A stretch of DNA of 64,000 bases, from NCBI RefSeq assembly GCF_001424125.1, contig NZ_LMQI01000003.1:443654-507653 (forward strand). The letters are read 5' to 3'. Below, in pieces: positions 5,694-10,958 of the stretch; within the stretch, counting starts at the first letter, position 1; each line of letters starts with the position of its first letter. Origin of the DNA: Cellulomonas sp. Leaf395 (GTDB taxonomy: Bacteria; Actinomycetota; Actinomycetes; Actinomycetales; Cellulomonadaceae). The notes beneath the pieces were generated by a model. That model was not told where the DNA came from, did not search any database, and saw only the letters and a list, made by a program, of their open reading frames with translations. The translations under genes and the position numbers were made by a program.

Positions 5694-6674
5694 GTGATCG
5701 TTCCGGATGACCTGCCGCTGTCCCGCTCCGGCGTCGACCGCGCCGCGCTGTTGCGTCTCGAGGACGGGTTCGTCGCTTCGGCGCTGGCCGACGACTCCAC
5801 CCGCGTGCTGCTCGTGTGCGACGGCGCGGTGGTGACGACCGGACGGTCGCGTGTCGCGCTGCTCAGGCCGTCGCAGGTGCCGGCGCTCGCGACGGACGAC
5901 GACGGCTGGCTCCTGCTCGGTCGCGGCGAGGCGGGCGAGACGTACCTGGCACGCCGGGTACCGGACCGCCGGCCGGCGCCCCGGGTCGGGGAGGCGTCCG
6001 ACATCCTGGTGCACGCGGCGCCGGCCAGTGCCGGACCCGCGCCCGTGCCCGCGCTTCCCGACGGGCTGGGGTGGACACCCCTGCGCGACATCGGCGCCGA
6101 CCTGACCGCGCACGAGGCGGGTCTGGCCACGACGGCCGTCGCGCTCGACGCCTGGCACGCCCGGCACCCGCGCTGCCCCCGCTGCGGCGGGAGGACGCGG
6201 GTCGCGCAGGCCGGCTGGACCCGGGTGTGCGTCGACGACGGCTCGGAGCACTACCCGCGCACCGACCCCGCGGTGATCATGGCCGTGGTCGACGACGACG
6301 ACCGGATCCTGCTCGGGCACGCCGCGCACTGGGCGGCCGGCCGATGGTCGACGCTCGCGGGCTTCGTGGAGGCGGGTGAGTCGCTCGAGAACGCCGTCCG
6401 CCGCGAGGTGGCCGAGGAGAGCGGGGTGGTCGTCGGCGACGTCTCCTACCGCGGGAGCCAGCCGTGGCCGTTCCCGGCGTCCTTGATGATCGGCTTCCGG
6501 GCGCGCGCGCGGTCCACGGACGTCACCCTCGACGGCGTCGAGCTGGCCGAGGCGCGATGGTTCTCCCGCGACGAGCTGGCCGACGCGATGCGGACGGGCA
6601 ACGTCATCCCGCCGGGGCGGGCGTCGATCGCGCGGGCGCTCGTGGAGGAGTGGTTCGGCGGTCCGCTCAGCTGA
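5694..6674 (+). CDS. nudC: NAD(+) diphosphatase / NADH pyrophosphatase (NudC family)
   Basis: A 326-residue Nudix hydrolase cleaving NADH/NAD to NMN(H) and AMP; family members also remove NAD caps from RNA. The N-terminal domain precedes a zinc-ribbon-like segment with C161-x2-C164 and C179, then a complete Nudix box at about 223-245 (G-x5-E-x7-REVAEESGV) and the NudC-specific SQPWPFP at 255-261. The fourth zinc-ligand position (residue 182), Cys in E. coli NudC, is Asp here. GTG 5694 starts the conserved N-terminus; an in-frame GTG at 5685 is an alternative. The 3' end overlaps the convergent mycoredoxin gene by 8 bases. Confidence 0.92.
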   Translation: MIVPDDLPLSRSGVDRAALLRLEDGFVASALADDSTRVLLVCDGAVVTTGRSRVALLRPSQVPALATDDDGWLLLGRGEAGETYLARRVPDRRPAPRVGEASDILVHAAPASAGPAPVPALPDGLGWTPLRDIGADLTAHEAGLATTAVALDAWHARHPRCPRCGGRTRVAQAGWTRVCVDDGSEHYPRTDPAVIMAVVDDDDRILLGHAAHWAAGRWSTLAGFVEAGESLENAVRREVAEESGVVVGDVSYRGSQPWPFPASLMIGFRARARSTDVTLDGVELAEARWFSRDELADAMRTGNVIPPGRASIARALVEEWFGGPLS

Positions 6675-6927
6675 GCCGGTCGCGGACCTGCGCGAGCGAC
6701 GGGTTCGTCGCCGCAGAGCCGTCGGGGAACACGACCGTGGGCACGGTCTGGTTGCCGCCGTTGAGGGACTCGACCAGCGACGCCGCGTCGGCGTGCTCCT
6801 CGATGTTGACCTCGGTGTAGCCGATCCCTGCCGAGTCGAGCTGTGTCTTCAGCCGGCGGCAGTAGCCGCACCACGTCGTGGAGTACATCGTGATGGTGCC
6901 GGCGTCGGGCAGGGTCTGCGTGGTCAT
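6667..6927 (-). CDS. mrx1: Mycoredoxin / glutaredoxin-like protein
   Basis: An 86-residue thioredoxin-fold protein with active site CGYC (C20, C23) after TMYSTTW, cis-Pro segment QTVPTVVF and a C-terminal helix. These are features of actinobacterial mycoredoxin-1, which reduces mycothiol mixed disulfides in the cytoplasm; the assignment to mycothiol rather than glutathione chemistry is from lineage. Start is the ATG at 6927; a longer reading would add an unconserved 17-residue tail. It is divergent from uvrD2 and converges on nudC with an 8-base overlap of coding ends. The same nudC-mrx1-uvrD2 order is known from mycobacteria. Confidence 0.9.
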   Translation of the reverse strand: MTTQTLPDAGTITMYSTTWCGYCRRLKTQLDSAGIGYTEVNIEEHADAASLVESLNGGNQTVPTVVFPDGSAATNPSLAQVRDRLS

Positions 6928-7087
6928 CGGTTCCTCGTGGTCGGGTCGGTGTCGGGCGAGGTCGTCGCCCGGGGACACTAACGCCGGTGCGCCCCGGGAT
7001 CATCCCCTGTCGCACGGACGGGTGACGGTCCCCGGTGTGCACAAAGGCGGCGACCGGGTGTCGGCAGGTGCTGAGAGACTGTGCCCG

Positions 7088-9088
7088 ATGTCCGCCGAAG
7101 CCCTCCTGGACGCCCTCGACCCCGAGCAGCGTGCCGTTGCCACCACCCTCCGGGGACCCGTGCGCGTGCTCGCCGGTGCGGGGACGGGCAAGACGCGCGC
7201 GATCACCCACCGCATCGCGTACGGCATCCAGGTGGGGGCCTACCGCCCGGCCAACGTGCTGGCCGTGACGTTCACCGCCCGAGCAGCGGGGGAGATGCGC
7301 ACACGCCTACGGCTGCTCGGCGCGTCCGGCGTCCAGGCGCGCACGTTCCACGCGGCCGCGCTGCGCCAGCTCGGGTTCTTCTGGCCCAAGGTCGTGGGCG
7401 GTCCGCCGCCGCGGATCCTCGAGCAGAAGGTCAAGCTCGTCGCGCACGCGGCTGCGCTGGTCGGTCTCGAGACGGATCGGGAGAGCGTGCGGGACCTGGC
7501 GTCCGAGATCGAGTGGGCCAAGGTCAGCCTGGTCACCGCGGACGACTACGCGAAGGCCGCCGCCGCGACGGACCGACCCGGCCCGGCTGGCATCGACCCG
7601 CAGTCCGTGGCACGCCTGATGGCGGCCTACGAGTCGGCCAAGGACCAGCAGGGCGTCATCGACTTCGAGGACGTGCTGCTCCTGCTCGCGGCCATGCTCG
7701 CCGAGCGGCGGGACGTCGCCGAGTCGATCCGGGAGCAGTACCAGCACTTCGTCGTCGACGAGTACCAGGACGTCAGTCCGCTCCAGCAGTACCTGCTCGA
7801 CCAGTGGCTGGGCGGCCGGCAGGAGCTGTGCGTCGTCGGCGACCCGAGCCAGACCATCTACTCGTTCGCCGGCGCGTCCTCCCACCACCTCACGTCGTTC
7901 ACCAGGACGTACCCGCGCGCGACCACGGTGGAGCTGGTCCGGGACTACCGCTCGACCCCGCAGGTGGTGTCCCTGGCCAACCACGTGATGCACGCGTCGC
8001 GCAAGGCCGGCGGACCGGCCCCGCTGGAGCTGCGCGCGCAACGGCCGGACGGACCGGACGTCTCCTACGTGACCTTTCCCGACGACGACGCCGAGGCCGC
8101 CGGCGTCACCGACGCGATCGCGACCCTGGTCCGCGGGGGCGTGGCGGCAGCCGACATCGCGGTGCTCTTCCGCACCAACGTGCAGTCCGAGGCGTTCGAG
8201 GCGGCACTGGCCGACCGGGGGATCGCGTACCAGGTGCGCGGGAACGCGCGCTTCTTCGCCCGCGCGGACGTGCGCAAGGCGATGGTCCTGCTGCGCGGCG
8301 GGGCTCGCGCGGCGGACCCGGGGACACCGATGCCGGAGTCCGTCCGGGACATTCTGCGCAGCGCGGGCTGGACCGACGCGCCGCCGGAGGGCAGGGGAGC
8401 GAGCCGCGAGCGCTGGGATGCGCTGCAAGCCCTCGTCTCGCTCGCCGACGCCCTCGCCGCAGCACCCGCGACGGGCGACGGGCCGCCCACCGTCTCCGAC
8501 CTCGTCGCGGAGCTCGACGAGCGCGCCGCGGCGCAGCATGCGCCGACCGTCGAGGGCGTGACCCTCGCGTCGCTGCACGCCGCCAAGGGCCTCGAGTGGG
8601 ACGCGGTGTTCCTCGTCGGTCTGTCCGACGGCCTCCTGCCGACCGTCCAGGCCCAGACGGATGCGGCCGTGGCTGAGGAACGGCGCCTGCTCTACGTCGG
8701 GATCACACGTGCCCGCGAGCACCTGCAGCTGTCGTACTCCCGAGCGCGCCACCCCCGGGCGCGCGCGAGCCGCGGGGTGTCCCGGTTCCTCACGGACCTG
8801 TGGCCCGACGAGCGCCGCCGGCCGGGTGTCCCGCGACGCGATCTCGACGCCCGTCAGCAGGCGGTGGTCGACGGCCTGACCGCGTGGCGGGACGCGCACG
8901 CGCGCGAGCTGCGTCGCCAACCCGCGTCCATCCTGACCAGCGCGACGATCCGCGCCATCGCGGAGCGGTGCCCGAGCACCCTCGAGGAGCTGGGCCGGAT
9001 CCGCGGCGTGGGTCCGATGACGCTCGCGGACGTCGGCGAGGACGTGCTGGCAATGGTCCGAGCCACGGTTCGCGAGCCTGCTCATTGA
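7088..9088 (+). CDS. uvrD2: ATP-dependent DNA helicase UvrD2 (SF1A helicase plus HRDC)
   Basis: A 666-residue 3'-5' helicase. Motifs in order: LDPEQRAVA Q-motif, Walker A GAGTGKT (30-36), DExx box VVDEYQDVSPLQ, motif III GDPSQTIYSFAGAS, motif V HAAKGLEWD, motif VI VGITRAR. A C-terminal HRDC domain of about 75 residues (from LDARQQAVVDGL to the end, containing RIRGVGPMTLADVG) is the mark of UvrD2 rather than UvrD1/PcrA. The tetracysteine motif reported between helicase and HRDC in mycobacterial UvrD2 is not visible here. ATG 7088 is used because it directly precedes the conserved start; upstream in-frame codons run into the divergent mycoredoxin promoter. Confidence 0.93.
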   Translation: MSAEALLDALDPEQRAVATTLRGPVRVLAGAGTGKTRAITHRIAYGIQVGAYRPANVLAVTFTARAAGEMRTRLRLLGASGVQARTFHAAALRQLGFFWPKVVGGPPPRILEQKVKLVAHAAALVGLETDRESVRDLASEIEWAKVSLVTADDYAKAAAATDRPGPAGIDPQSVARLMAAYESAKDQQGVIDFEDVLLLLAAMLAERRDVAESIREQYQHFVVDEYQDVSPLQQYLLDQWLGGRQELCVVGDPSQTIYSFAGASSHHLTSFTRTYPRATTVELVRDYRSTPQVVSLANHVMHASRKAGGPAPLELRAQRPDGPDVSYVTFPDDDAEAAGVTDAIATLVRGGVAAADIAVLFRTNVQSEAFEAALADRGIAYQVRGNARFFARADVRKAMVLLRGGARAADPGTPMPESVRDILRSAGWTDAPPEGRGASRERWDALQALVSLADALAAAPATGDGPPTVSDLVAELDERAAAQHAPTVEGVTLASLHAAKGLEWDAVFLVGLSDGLLPTVQAQTDAAVAEERRLLYVGITRAREHLQLSYSRARHPRARASRGVSRFLTDLWPDERRRPGVPRRDLDARQQAVVDGLTAWRDAHARELRRQPASILTSATIRAIAERCPSTLEELGRIRGVGPMTLADVGEDVLAMVRATVREPAH

Positions 9089-9128
9089 GCCCCACGGGCC
9101 TTGGCAGAAATTCGTCGAGGATTCTTCG

Positions 9129-9167
9129 TTAATTCGGTTGTCCGCCTCGCGAGCCCGGTCCTAGTCT
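9129..9167 (+). promoter_or_regulatory. whiB7 promoter with AT-rich element
   Basis: A TTGTCC -35 box (9138-9143) and TAGTCT -10 box (9162-9167) are separated by 18 bases. An AT-rich TTAATT (9129-9134) sits three bases upstream of the -35, the position where WhiB7 with sigma A contacts its own promoters in mycobacteria. The expected transcript start near 9174 gives a leader of about 390 nt before whiB7. Promoter boxes are read by eye; autoregulation is inferred from the family. Confidence 0.6.
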
Positions 9168-9232
9168 GTTCGACGTCCTTGTTGAGGGATCGCGCCGGAA
9201 GGCGAAGGTCCGACCGGAGGGGGGTGGGTGCA

Positions 9233-9424
9233 TTGACGAAGAACACGATGATCGAGACGCCGAGCGCGTACGCGTTCCTGCCGCGATCTGTCGCGCCCAT
9301 CACGTTCCGGTTCCAGGGGATCGCTCTGCCCATCGGCGGCGGTGCCTGGAAGGCCACCGGCGGGTCGAAGCGTCGCATCGCGACAGATCCCCGCACGCAC
9401 CTGACCCGGACTCCCATGATCTGA
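9233..9424 (+). CDS. whiB7 leader ORF (uORF), 63 codons
   Basis: A short ORF in the whiB7 leader whose third codon positions are almost all G or C (about 55 of 63), which supports real translation. A purine-rich GGAGGGGGG run (9216-9224) precedes a TTG start at 9233; GTG 9224 and ATG 9248 are in frame and possible. The peptide has no recognised domain (it runs ...PSAYAFLPRSVAPITFRF... to ...HLTRTPMI). Its stop (9422-9424) lies 17 bases before the terminator hairpin, and its last codons contain the 5' strand of a possible antiterminator. By analogy with whiB7/wblC leaders the act of translating it, not the peptide, probably matters: ribosome stalling by antibiotics would switch on whiB7. Confidence 0.65.
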   Translation: MTKNTMIETPSAYAFLPRSVAPITFRFQGIALPIGGGAWKATGGSKRRIATDPRTHLTRTPMI

Positions 9425-9455
9425 CCTCACATCGAGGCACAGGCCGCGGAGTCCG
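9407..9455 (+). promoter_or_regulatory. Candidate antiterminator helix of the whiB7 leader
   Basis: CGGACTCC (9407-9414, inside the last uORF codons) is perfectly complementary to GGAGTCCG (9448-9455, the middle of the terminator 5' arm). A ribosome at the uORF stop (9422-9424) would cover 9407-9414 and leave the terminator free to fold; a ribosome stalled further upstream would leave it open to pair and disrupt the terminator. The complementarity is directly visible; the switching model is inference consistent with known whiB7 attenuation. Confidence 0.55.
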
Positions 9456-9480
9456 AACTCGGACCCGCGGCCTTTCTGTT
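9442..9480 (+). terminator. Intrinsic terminator/attenuator upstream of whiB7
   Basis: GGCCGCGG (9442-9449), one bulged A, GTCCG, loop AACT, CGGAC and CCGCGGCC (9465-9472) form a 13-bp hairpin followed by TTTCTGTT. It lies between the uORF stop and the whiB7 start, so it would end transcription before whiB7 unless prevented. Confidence 0.8.
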
Positions 9481-9563
9481 CTCCCGATGAGTCGGGTGAA
9501 CGGGTTGGCAGTCGGTCCGGCACCGACGCAACACGCTCACCGCAAGGACATCAGGAGGCCATC

Positions 9564-9914
9564 GTGCGGCTCACGACGCTGCTCGACACGGTGAACCAGG
9601 GCGGATCCGGCCAGTGGCCCGTCACCGACAGCACTTCGACGACCCACGACCACCAGACGTTCGACCAGCTTGTCGCCGACTTCATCCCGTGCCGGTCCAA
9701 CGACCCCGAGCTCTGGTTCGCCGAGCGGACCGCCGAGGTCGAGCAGGCCAAGGCCCTGTGCCGTGAGTGCCCGCTGATGGAGGGGTGCCTGGCCGGCGCC
9801 ATCGAACGCGCCGAGCCGTGGGGCGTGTGGGGTGGCGAGGTGTTCGTCGGCGGTGTGGTGGTCGCGACCAAGCGTGGTCGTGGTCGCCCCCGGAAGAACG
9901 CAGCTCCGGCCTGA
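9564..9914 (+). CDS. whiB7: WhiB7 family transcriptional regulator
   Basis: A 116-residue iron-sulfur transcription factor that works with the primary sigma factor to activate intrinsic antibiotic-resistance genes. The four cluster cysteines are C43, C66, C69 and C75 (C-x22-C-x2-C-x5-C), followed by the GVWGGE turn (87-92) and an AT-hook KRGRGRPRK (103-111) that distinguishes WhiB7 from other Wbl proteins. GTG 9564 is preceded by AGGAGG with 6 bases between. The leader (about 9174-9563) contains uORF, terminator and a candidate antiterminator, so expression is probably controlled by attenuation plus autoactivation. Converges on the ThiF-like gene 24 bases downstream. Confidence 0.95.
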   Translation: MRLTTLLDTVNQGGSGQWPVTDSTSTTHDHQTFDQLVADFIPCRSNDPELWFAERTAEVEQAKALCRECPLMEGCLAGAIERAEPWGVWGGEVFVGGVVVATKRGRGRPRKNAAPA

Positions 9915-9938: not shown

Positions 9939-10958
9939 TCATCCCTGCGCGCTGACCAGCGACGCCGGGAGGGCGGTGCACCCGCACTCGGGGTGCACCG
10001 CCCACGTGCGTCTGCGGGGCACGGCATCCGGCAGGGCCACCTCGAACGTGGCTCCCGGTGCGAGACCGGTGGCGCGGTCCAGGTGCGAGAGCACCGCCGC
10101 GGTGCCGAGGCCGGCGCAGACCGCGGCGACCGGACCGGCCTCGTCCGCAACCCCGCCGGCGTGCAGCTGCGCGACGATCGTGGGCCACGACGCATCCACG
10201 TCCGCGCGGTGCAGATCGAGGCAGCGCAGGCACGGCCCTGCGCCGGGCACGACGAACGGTCCGACGACCGTGTCCGCCTCGCGGACGACGACGCCGAGGT
10301 GGGCGATGCCACCGGCGACGAGGCCCGGTCCTCGTCCCGGGTCCGCCACATCGTCCTCGACGAGAACCACGACGTCCGGTGTCCGGTCCGTCGCGGTGGA
10401 CACGTGCGGTGCGACATCCCTCAGCAGCCGAGCCGCCACGTGCTCGCGCACCGACCCCACGTCGGCCCACCGGTACCCGCACACGCCGACGTCCGTCGAG
10501 CGGACAGCCCGTCCGTCGTCCACGAGCAGGGTGCCGACCCCCGCTGCCGCGAGCCCGACGGCGATGCCGAGCCCCGTCGGTCCGAGCCCGAGGACCGCGA
10601 CCACCCGGTCCGCGCGCGCACGGACGACTCCGGCGCCGTCCCCGTCGGCACCCAGGAGGGACCACACTGCGGCATCGACGGCCGCGGGCCCGCGCAGGAC
10701 CGCGCGGGCCGGCCCGTCGGACGTGAGGCGCGCCCCGACCAGCGCATCGACGAGCGCGCGGACCCTGTCCGGGTCGACGTCCCGGCCCGCAGCCAGCTGT
10801 GCGACCTCGGTCAGGTCGGTGCGCGGGTCTAGGGACTGGAGCAGGTCCGCCTCGGCGGGGGTGAGGTCGGGGAGGCGGACGGCCCAGCGCGGGTCGGTGC
10901 CCACCTGGACCTCCGTGGCGGTGCGGCGCAGCACCCGCAGCCCGGCACGCAGTCGCAT
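9939..10958 (-). CDS. ThiF/MoeB/E1-like adenylyltransferase-fold protein
   Basis: A 339-residue protein whose middle carries an E1-like Rossmann nucleotide-binding region (VLGLGPTGLGIAVGLA, about residue 138) followed by LLVDDGRAVRSTDV, the expected Asp strand. A zinc site is likely from CLRC (about 246-249) and the C-terminal pair in PECGC (about 322-324), as in MoeB/ThiF proteins. The N-terminal 110 residues resemble the winged-helix/PqqD-like part of the cyclodehydratase-partner ThiF proteins. No precursor peptide, ubiquitin-like protein or YcaO gene is visible nearby, so the substrate is unknown. It appears at the corresponding place in the conserved actinobacterial gene order between whiB7 and the zincin gene. 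Confidence 0.72.
   Translation of the reverse strand: MRLRAGLRVLRRTATEVQVGTDPRWAVRLPDLTPAEADLLQSLDPRTDLTEVAQLAAGRDVDPDRVRALVDALVGARLTSDGPARAVLRGPAAVDAAVWSLLGADGDGAGVVRARADRVVAVLGLGPTGLGIAVGLAAAGVGTLLVDDGRAVRSTDVGVCGYRWADVGSVREHVAARLLRDVAPHVSTATDRTPDVVVLVEDDVADPGRGPGLVAGGIAHLGVVVREADTVVGPFVVPGAGPCLRCLDLHRADVDASWPTIVAQLHAGGVADEAGPVAAVCAGLGTAAVLSHLDRATGLAPGATFEVALPDAVPRRRTWAVHPECGCTALPASLVSAQG

What the first reader, a model, noticed from the sequence alone, without database searches (positions are those of the whole stretch)
9129..9563. Complete ribosome-controlled attenuator in front of whiB7
The leader holds a promoter with an AT-rich element, a well-biased 63-codon uORF, a 13-bp terminator hairpin with a T-run, and an 8-base sequence inside the last uORF codons (CGGACTCC, 9407-9414) exactly complementary to the terminator 5' arm (9448-9455). 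A ribosome at the uORF stop would mask the first strand and let the terminator form; stalling upstream would free it and favour read-through into whiB7. uORF-dependent whiB7 attenuation is known in mycobacteria and Streptomyces; the particular uORF peptide and geometry here are specific to this sequence.
Basis: partly seen in the sequence, partly recalled or inferred. Interest (0 to 1): 0.72.

Follow-up and report, generated by a model that had tools for sequence, protein, structure and literature searches.

The report
Ribosome-controlled switch in front of whiB7
In this soil bacterium (a Cellulomonas) the antibiotic-resistance regulator whiB7 sits behind an RNA on/off switch that appears to be read by the ribosome, a known type of control, and its leader also carries a short sequence, kept almost unchanged in close relatives, that looks like a stopping place for RNA polymerase.

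Summary
The leader of a true whiB7 (9564-9914) holds a 63-codon uORF, a terminator hairpin (9441-9473, one bulged A) and CGGACTCC (9407-9414), complementary to the terminator's 5' arm (9448-9455). The genus is Cellulomonas, judged from named relatives. All 77 whiB7 leaders examined there show a uORF and this hairpin. Where the arm differs, the upstream strand differs with it: own pairing beat all 20,000 permutations over 23 arm types, although a fixed-alignment count was null. Ribosome-dependent attenuation of whiB7/wblC is published, so this is a new member of a known kind, and its geometry is not specific to this sequence. It fits the RNA polymerase pause consensus. A match 60-135 nt after the uORF start occurs in 74 of 77 genus, 24 of 39 family and 40 of 68 class leaders, against 4-19% in most control stretches and 19-38% just before the start. 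A pause that lets the ribosome catch up is the likeliest reading; untested.

The parts
9129..9167 (+). promoter-like region: AT-rich TTAATT (9129-9134), 3 nt, -35-like TTGTCC (9138-9143), 18 nt, -10-like TAGTCT (9162-9167)
   Evidence: read; TTG-N16..19-TANNNT upstream of the uORF in 76 of 77 genus leaders (chance rate not computed); transcription start not measured
9216..9222 (+). Shine-Dalgarno-like GGAGGGG of the uORF
   Evidence: an SD-like motif scored at least 4 precedes the called uORF in 74 of 77 genus leaders (the caller picks the start with the best SD)
9233..9424 (+). uORF, 63 codons, TTG start, TGA stop; in-frame alternatives GTG 9224 and ATG 9248
   Evidence: uORF called near the terminator arm in 77 of 77 genus leaders
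9311..9331 (+). pause-consensus-like element TTCCAGGGGATCGCTCTGCCC; predicted RNA 3' end (-1) at T9327, +1 at G9328, G-11/G-10 at 9317/9318, T-3 at 9325
   Evidence: nucleotide-level freeze; 74 of 77 genus leaders; only exact match to CCAGGGGNNNGSTSTGYCC in the genome
9407..9414 (+). antiterminator 5' strand CGGACTCC, inside the last uORF codons
9425..9437 (+). small hairpin CCTC-loop-GAGG directly after the uORF stop, at the tip of the antiterminator
   Evidence: the 42 nt before the arm fold moderately better than shuffles in the genus, mean z -1.0, 33 of 77 with z below -1
9441..9455 (+). terminator 5' arm (bulged A9450); 9448-9455 is also the antiterminator 3' strand
   Evidence: terminator pairs covary on 67 genus rows, 0 of 500 shuffles as high on four of five measures, 33 of 500 on the fifth
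9460..9480 (+). terminator 3' arm (9460-9473) and T-run
9564..9914 (+). whiB7, 116 aa, GTG start, AGGAGG at 9553-9558, C-terminal RGRPRK AT-hook
   Evidence: Pfam Whib E 1.1e-15; 77 of 81 genus genomes, own included, have it at E <= 1e-20

Best explanation
This is a ribosome-sensing transcription attenuator of whiB7. RNA polymerase starts near 9174 (inferred) and transcribes the uORF. It probably pauses at 9327 (inferred) until a ribosome that has started at 9233 catches up. If translation is unhindered, the ribosome reaches the stop codon at 9422-9424 and covers 9407-9414; the arm 9448-9455 is then free to pair with 9460-9473 and transcription ends in the T-run. If ribosomes are slowed by an antibiotic or by lack of charged tRNA, or lag behind, 9407-9414 pairs with 9448-9455 as soon as it is made, the terminator is delayed, and polymerase reads into whiB7. 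The sequence features, their conservation and the pairing are shown by computation; start site, ribosome stalling, pausing and read-through are inferred.
For: Terminator and antiterminator both fold far better than shuffles. The antiterminator dominates while the transcript ends between about 9455 and 9467 and is abolished by covering 9405-9437. Own strand and arm pair better than in any of 20,000 permutations across 23 arm types (up to 12 leaders averaged per type), and the true match is the best of all 120 arrangements of the 5 genus arm types. Against shuffled upstream sequence the own pairing is stronger in 74 of 77 genus and 169 of 184 leaders overall. A uORF is called and the hairpin seen in 77 of 77 genus leaders. 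Terminator pairs covary. Of 30 further leaders not identical to earlier ones, 28 have a pairing of -8 kcal/mol or better. The same mechanism is reported for whiB7/wblC: review PMC11550727 (passages), PMC4128351 (passages), PMC13236596 (passages), PMC12421871 (passages).
Against: Position by position on a genus alignment the antiterminator shows no covariation beyond shuffles: 80.0% of cells paired against 79.2% shuffled, 62 of 500. The arm is nearly invariant there (68 of 77 GGAGTCC) and bulged variants misalign; the slid-register controls (28-51% paired) do favour the structure. At equilibrium the terminator wins (P 0.98) with or without a ribosome and is 9.3 kcal/mol more stable than the enforced antiterminator, so read-through needs kinetic trapping. 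Leaders with a GGAACCC arm (41 of 184) give no support for the same pairing, mean rank 0.50. The fold-based terminator finder missed 21 of 189 leaders, 6 of them in the genus (L034-L037, L088, L091), although a hairpin is visible there. No expression data for this organism.
Confidence: 0.88

Rival explanations
1. A plain constitutive leader: the terminator only lowers whiB7 expression, and the uORF is an incidental open frame of a G+C-rich genome with no sensing role.
For: Long open frames are common in such DNA (one search lists 59 of at least 30 aa overlapping 6 kb); the peptide is not under purifying selection, dN/dS 0.76-1.44 in 10 comparisons; the uORF caller looks for the best SD and a stop near the arm, so part of the regularity is built in.
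Against: Stops cluster 20-24 nt (IQR) before the arm within a 74-nt search range, in a set whose uORFs differ widely in length; compensatory strand/arm changes.
Confidence: 0.05
2. Arrest-peptide control: the conserved-looking LAPT...FQG.AVP stretch of the uORF peptide stalls ribosomes with drug, as in erm leaders.
For: The consensus LAPT...FQG.AVP recurs in the genus and an FQG-like core is seen in several distant uORFs.
Against: The freeze is in nucleotides: third base T at the fifth codon of the element in 75 of 77 leaders while the residue varies (Ala, Gly, Thr, Ser and others), against 11% T elsewhere in these uORFs; Gly codon GGG in 71 of 74. Core columns differ at amino-acid sites at least as much as at silent ones, pN 0.42 against pS 0.35. 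A protein search with the peptide matched only 13 of 60 genus genomes.
Confidence: 0.08
3. The 9311-9331 element is an internal in-frame translation start (AGGGG as SD, NTG as start), giving a second, shorter uORF product.
For: AGGGG lies 6 nt upstream of GTG/CTG in the genus consensus; T 0.92 and G 0.99 at the relevant positions.
Against: C stands at the first base in 15 of 46 distinct genus elements, giving mostly CTG, a poor start; NTG is broken by C at the middle base in 4 of 46 genus, 2 of 11 family and 2 of 23 class elements while G+1 stays in 7 of these 8; it does not explain T-3 or the following CC.
Confidence: 0.08
4. The 9311-9331 element is an RNA structure or a protein-binding site rather than a polymerase pause.
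For: RNAalifold finds one weak pairing, GGG with CCC, at -2.5 against a column-shuffled mean of -0.02; the CC at +3/+4 is conserved beyond the pause consensus; an upstream block (9290-9301, GTCGCGCCCATC here) is also conserved; M. tuberculosis pause sites showed no strong consensus (PMC10937400, passage).
Against: Only three pairs around a ten-nt loop; the invariant T-3 and G+1 lie in the loop and are unexplained by it.
Confidence: 0.3

Closest known systems
uORF-mediated attenuation of whiB7/wblC (Lee, Lee and Roe 2022, Mol Microbiol 117:179, not held, seen only as cited; review PMC11550727 and Dinan 2014 PMC4128351, passages)
   Same: Same gene, uORF, intrinsic terminator after the uORF, ribosome position choosing terminator or antiterminator.
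   Different: Mapped in a Cellulomonas; antiterminator strand inside the last uORF codons supported by compensatory changes; a conserved pause-like element not mentioned in the passages read (Lee 2022 itself could not be read).
Amino-acid attenuators with leader pauses (trpL, hisL; PMC9291695 and PMC12288461, passages)
   Same: Leader ORF, alternative hairpins, a pause site within the leader; hisL carries the DNA pause consensus in its leader peptide ORF. That a ribosome at the stop favours the terminator in trp is recalled.
   Different: No run of one amino acid as sensor; here the pause would depend on sequence, with no conserved upstream hairpin found.
Antibiotic-responsive leaders vmlR (ABCF) and tlrB of Bacillus (PMC12288461, passages)
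   Same: Antibiotic-dependent leader control in which a leader pause takes part; in tlrB it gives time to translate a short leader peptide.
   Different: Those pauses are NusG-dependent with a TTNTTT motif; here the motif is of the G-10 Y-1 G+1 type.

Membership tests
whiB7/wblC uORF attenuator | downstream gene is whiB7/wblC (WhiB domain plus AT-hook) | tested here: met
   Pfam Whib E 1.1e-15, C-terminal RGRPRK; that the AT-hook marks whiB7 is recalled, and PMC10432532 has it in its title (listing)
whiB7/wblC uORF attenuator | translated uORF in the leader | tested here: inconclusive
   uORF with SD in relatives; translation itself not measured
whiB7/wblC uORF attenuator | intrinsic terminator between uORF and gene | tested here: met
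   hairpin visible in 77 of 77 genus leaders, 71 of 77 by the stricter finder
whiB7/wblC uORF attenuator | competing antiterminator blocked by a ribosome at the uORF stop | tested here: met
   (computation only); alignment-based count null
whiB7/wblC uORF attenuator | autoregulated promoter with an AT-rich box 3 nt upstream of -35 (GAAAWY in Streptomyces, PMC7157823 passage) | tested here: inconclusive
   TTAATT 3 nt upstream of TTGTCC: AT-rich, 4 of 6 positions fit GAAAWY
whiB7/wblC uORF attenuator | induction by ribosome-targeting antibiotics or amino-acid starvation | not testable with these tools
   needs expression data
amino-acid (trp/his type) attenuator | run of codons for one regulatory amino acid | tested here: not met
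   the longest run in the 63-codon peptide is three Gly codons
RNA polymerase elemental pause site | G-10 Y-1 G+1 | tested here: met
   T9327 G9328 with G9318; without selecting on those positions, 46 of 46 distinct genus elements have T-3, Y-1 and G+1
RNA polymerase elemental pause site | measured polymerase dwell | not testable with these tools
   needs in vitro transcription or NET-seq

The most novel reading that the evidence does not exclude
whiB7 leaders across much of the class carry a built-in RNA polymerase pause inside the uORF, about 90 nt after its start codon. It is kept as nucleotides while the peptide drifts, and it synchronises polymerase with the first ribosome so that the attenuator measures ribosome speed itself rather than a particular codon or drug. 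That would explain how one leader senses many unrelated translation inhibitors.
Probability: 0.45. Interest if true: 0.62.

Novelty: new member of a known kind. Interest (0 to 1): 0.42.

Why it matters
It shows that the whiB7 attenuator is kept across Cellulomonas and much of its family with compensatory evolution of the antiterminator, which gives a comparative set for finding and dissecting such switches in harmless soil actinobacteria. If the pause-like element is real, it is a specific site that makes an open question testable: how one leader responds to many chemically unrelated translation inhibitors. An eLife paper states that antibiotic-induced stalling in the whiB7 uORF has not been tested (PMC12121999, passage).

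Tried and rejected
Conserved arrest peptide: suggested, rejected because the conservation is at third codon positions. Conserved hairpin in the element: only GGG/CCC. Covariation on a fixed alignment: null for the antiterminator; an alignment-free permutation test was then made. The first regular expression for the element was off by one and found it in 0 of 77 genus leaders, corrected. Rfam: two matches, both far below the gathering score. One terminator arm (L090) was placed wrongly by the script and used so in the genus counts and alignment; repaired. The uORF caller gave a bonus to frames that fit a peptide pattern; recounted without the bonus, one start changed and the counts stayed 74 of 77, 24 of 39 and 40 of 68. 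uORF calls for L090 and L095-L097 look doubtful in the alignment. Two duplicate loci (L104, L106) were dropped; five loci without a terminator arm (L154, L155, L164, L171, L181) of 189 were left out of the 184-leader counts; 6 of 80 named loci gave no terminator in the quick finder, and 44 of the other 74 were identical to earlier leaders and not recounted.

Full report
What is there. The window lies in a Cellulomonas-like genome: the closest named relatives of the protein are Cellulomonas sp. Leaf334 and C. humilata at 97% identity. Window 9564-9914 encodes a 116-aa WhiB protein with a C-terminal RGRPRK AT-hook, i.e. whiB7. A UvrD/HRDC helicase lies upstream (6878-9088) and beyond it, on the minus strand, a short protein with a CGYC motif that looks like mycoredoxin (6667-6978); recalled, not tested: the same order is known around whiB7 of mycobacteria.

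Leader anatomy. The terminator has 14 pairs with one bulged A; MFE -29.4, z -6.1. The antiterminator formed before the 3' arm is transcribed (9400-9457) has MFE -23.8, z -3.65, and is one nested stem that also contains a small hairpin just after the uORF stop. In a growing transcript (from 9340) the antiterminator reaches probability 0.88 at 3' end 9455 and 0.97 at 9467, then the terminator takes over by 9473; with 9405-9437 covered as by a ribosome at the stop, the antiterminator never forms and the terminator does. At full length the terminator wins at equilibrium whatever the ribosome does, so antitermination has to be kinetic.

Conservation. 81 genomes of the genus were searched and 77, the own one included, have whiB7 at E <= 1e-20; all 77 leaders were taken. 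The hairpin is visible in each (74 by a pattern, in some of which the pattern caught a later stretch while the hairpin stands in the printed flank, and 3 in a variant form); a stricter fold-based finder has 71 of 77. A uORF is called in each, ending a median of 23 nt before the arm, IQR 20-24, within a search range of 62 nt before to 12 nt after the arm's start. The family and class sets give 107 further leaders with a located arm, 39 and 68. The upstream strand follows the arm: GGAGTCC with GGACTCC (most), GGAATCC with GGATTCT (L029), GGAAGCC with GGGCTTC (L085, L086), GGACTCC with bulged GGAGTCC-like strands (L093, L095-L097), GGACCCC with GGGGTCC in distant relatives. Over 23 arm types the true pairing is stronger than all 20,000 permutations, and in the genus alone it is the best of 120. 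The fixed-alignment count was null for the antiterminator and strong for the terminator, both on 67 distinct rows of which one (L090) was misplaced. The 41 GGAACCC leaders do not fit this pairing: there the antiterminator must differ or be absent.

The uORF is kept as a frame, not as a peptide. dN/dS against ten relatives is 0.76-1.44, nine of ten at 1.0 or above, and a protein search with the peptide matched 13 of 60 genus genomes. The one recurrent motif, LAPT...FQG.AVP, is a nucleotide element. In 75 distinct genus uORFs the Gly codon is GGG in 71 of 74, Ala GCT in 40 of 40, Val GTG in 42 of 42. The third base of the fifth element codon is T in 75 of 77, against 11% T among 4,346 other uORF codons. 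Elements found by matching only CCAGGG and the later CC (at least 7 of 8 letters) show T-3, Y-1 and G+1 in 46 of 46 distinct genus sequences; T-3, Y-1 and G+1 each in 22 of 23 in the class; and in 10, 10 and 11 of 11 in the family. Y-1 is a middle codon base and could also reflect a small or hydrophobic residue; T-3 and G+1 are third bases and cannot. G-10 Y-1 G+1 is the pause consensus described in PMC9291695 and PMC12288461 (passages); the extension to G-11, T-3 and G-2 is recalled.

Counts and controls for the element. A match GG-N6-T-N-Y-G ends 60-135 nt after the uORF start in 74 of 77 genus, 24 of 39 family and 40 of 68 class leaders and in 21 of 30 further named leaders. Controls: 5 of 41 coding-like ORFs of the window, 17% expected from their density; 4.3% expected from whiB7 coding sequence and 13.6% from the rest of the uORFs; and neighbouring windows of the same leaders: just before the start 29 of 77, 10 of 39 and 13 of 68; in the first 75 nt 7, 7 and 4; at +140 to +215 9, 6 and 11. 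By similarity to the whole genus consensus (13 or more of 18 positions) the element is seen in 75 of 77 genus, 17 of 39 family and 16 of 68 class leaders, against 5 of 184 shuffled ones. In the genus it lies a median of 91 nt after the start (IQR 88-94), while its distance to the terminator varies (IQR 97-138): it is tied to the start of translation. An exact match to the extended pattern occurs only here in the genome; matches with up to two mismatches are no commoner than the reversed control, 53 against 65.

Mechanism. The known model for whiB7/wblC fits the parts (PMC11550727, PMC4128351, PMC13236596, passages seen). The added element is best read as a polymerase pause that lets the ribosome catch up, as in trp and his leaders. 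Against it: in M. tuberculosis no strong consensus was found around pause sites (PMC10937400, passage); the match is missing in 15 of 39 family and 28 of 68 class leaders; and the CC at +3/+4 and an upstream conserved block are not explained by the pause consensus. Literature: the searches listed 25 of 70, 15 of 76, 4 of 4, 15 of 28, 6 of 6, 8 of 17 and 1 of 1 papers; none of those listed describes such an element in its title or in the start of its abstract. Lee 2022 could not be read, so whether it is in print remains open.

Verdict. The attenuator is real by comparative evidence and ordinary in kind: a new member of a published class. The pause-like element is the part worth a specialist's time.

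Noticed in passing
window 9971-10003: A strong G+C-rich inverted repeat (GGGCGGTGCACCC ... GGGGTGCACCGCCC) without a T-run lies beyond the 3' end of whiB7, inside the 3' end of the convergent ThiF-domain gene (9939-10958, minus strand); seen by eye.
   Followed up: no
window 6667-9914: Gene order glutaredoxin-like CGYC protein (minus strand), UvrD/HRDC helicase, whiB7; from memory the same neighbourhood surrounds whiB7 in mycobacteria.
   Followed up: no
window 9099-9120: A weak terminator-like hairpin (7 pairs) between the helicase gene and the whiB7 promoter.
   Followed up: no
window 9290-9301: A second nucleotide-level conserved block in the uORF (GTCGCGCCCATC here, genus consensus about CTCGCGCCCACC; Ala codon never GCC in 63, Pro CCC in 61 of 65), about 26-37 nt upstream of the predicted pause; unexplained.
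   Followed up: partly
L124-L149 and other class leaders with arm GGAACCC: The terminator is nearly identical across many of these distant leaders, but the upstream strand does not match its arm as it does here, so their antiterminator is probably built differently.
   Followed up: partly
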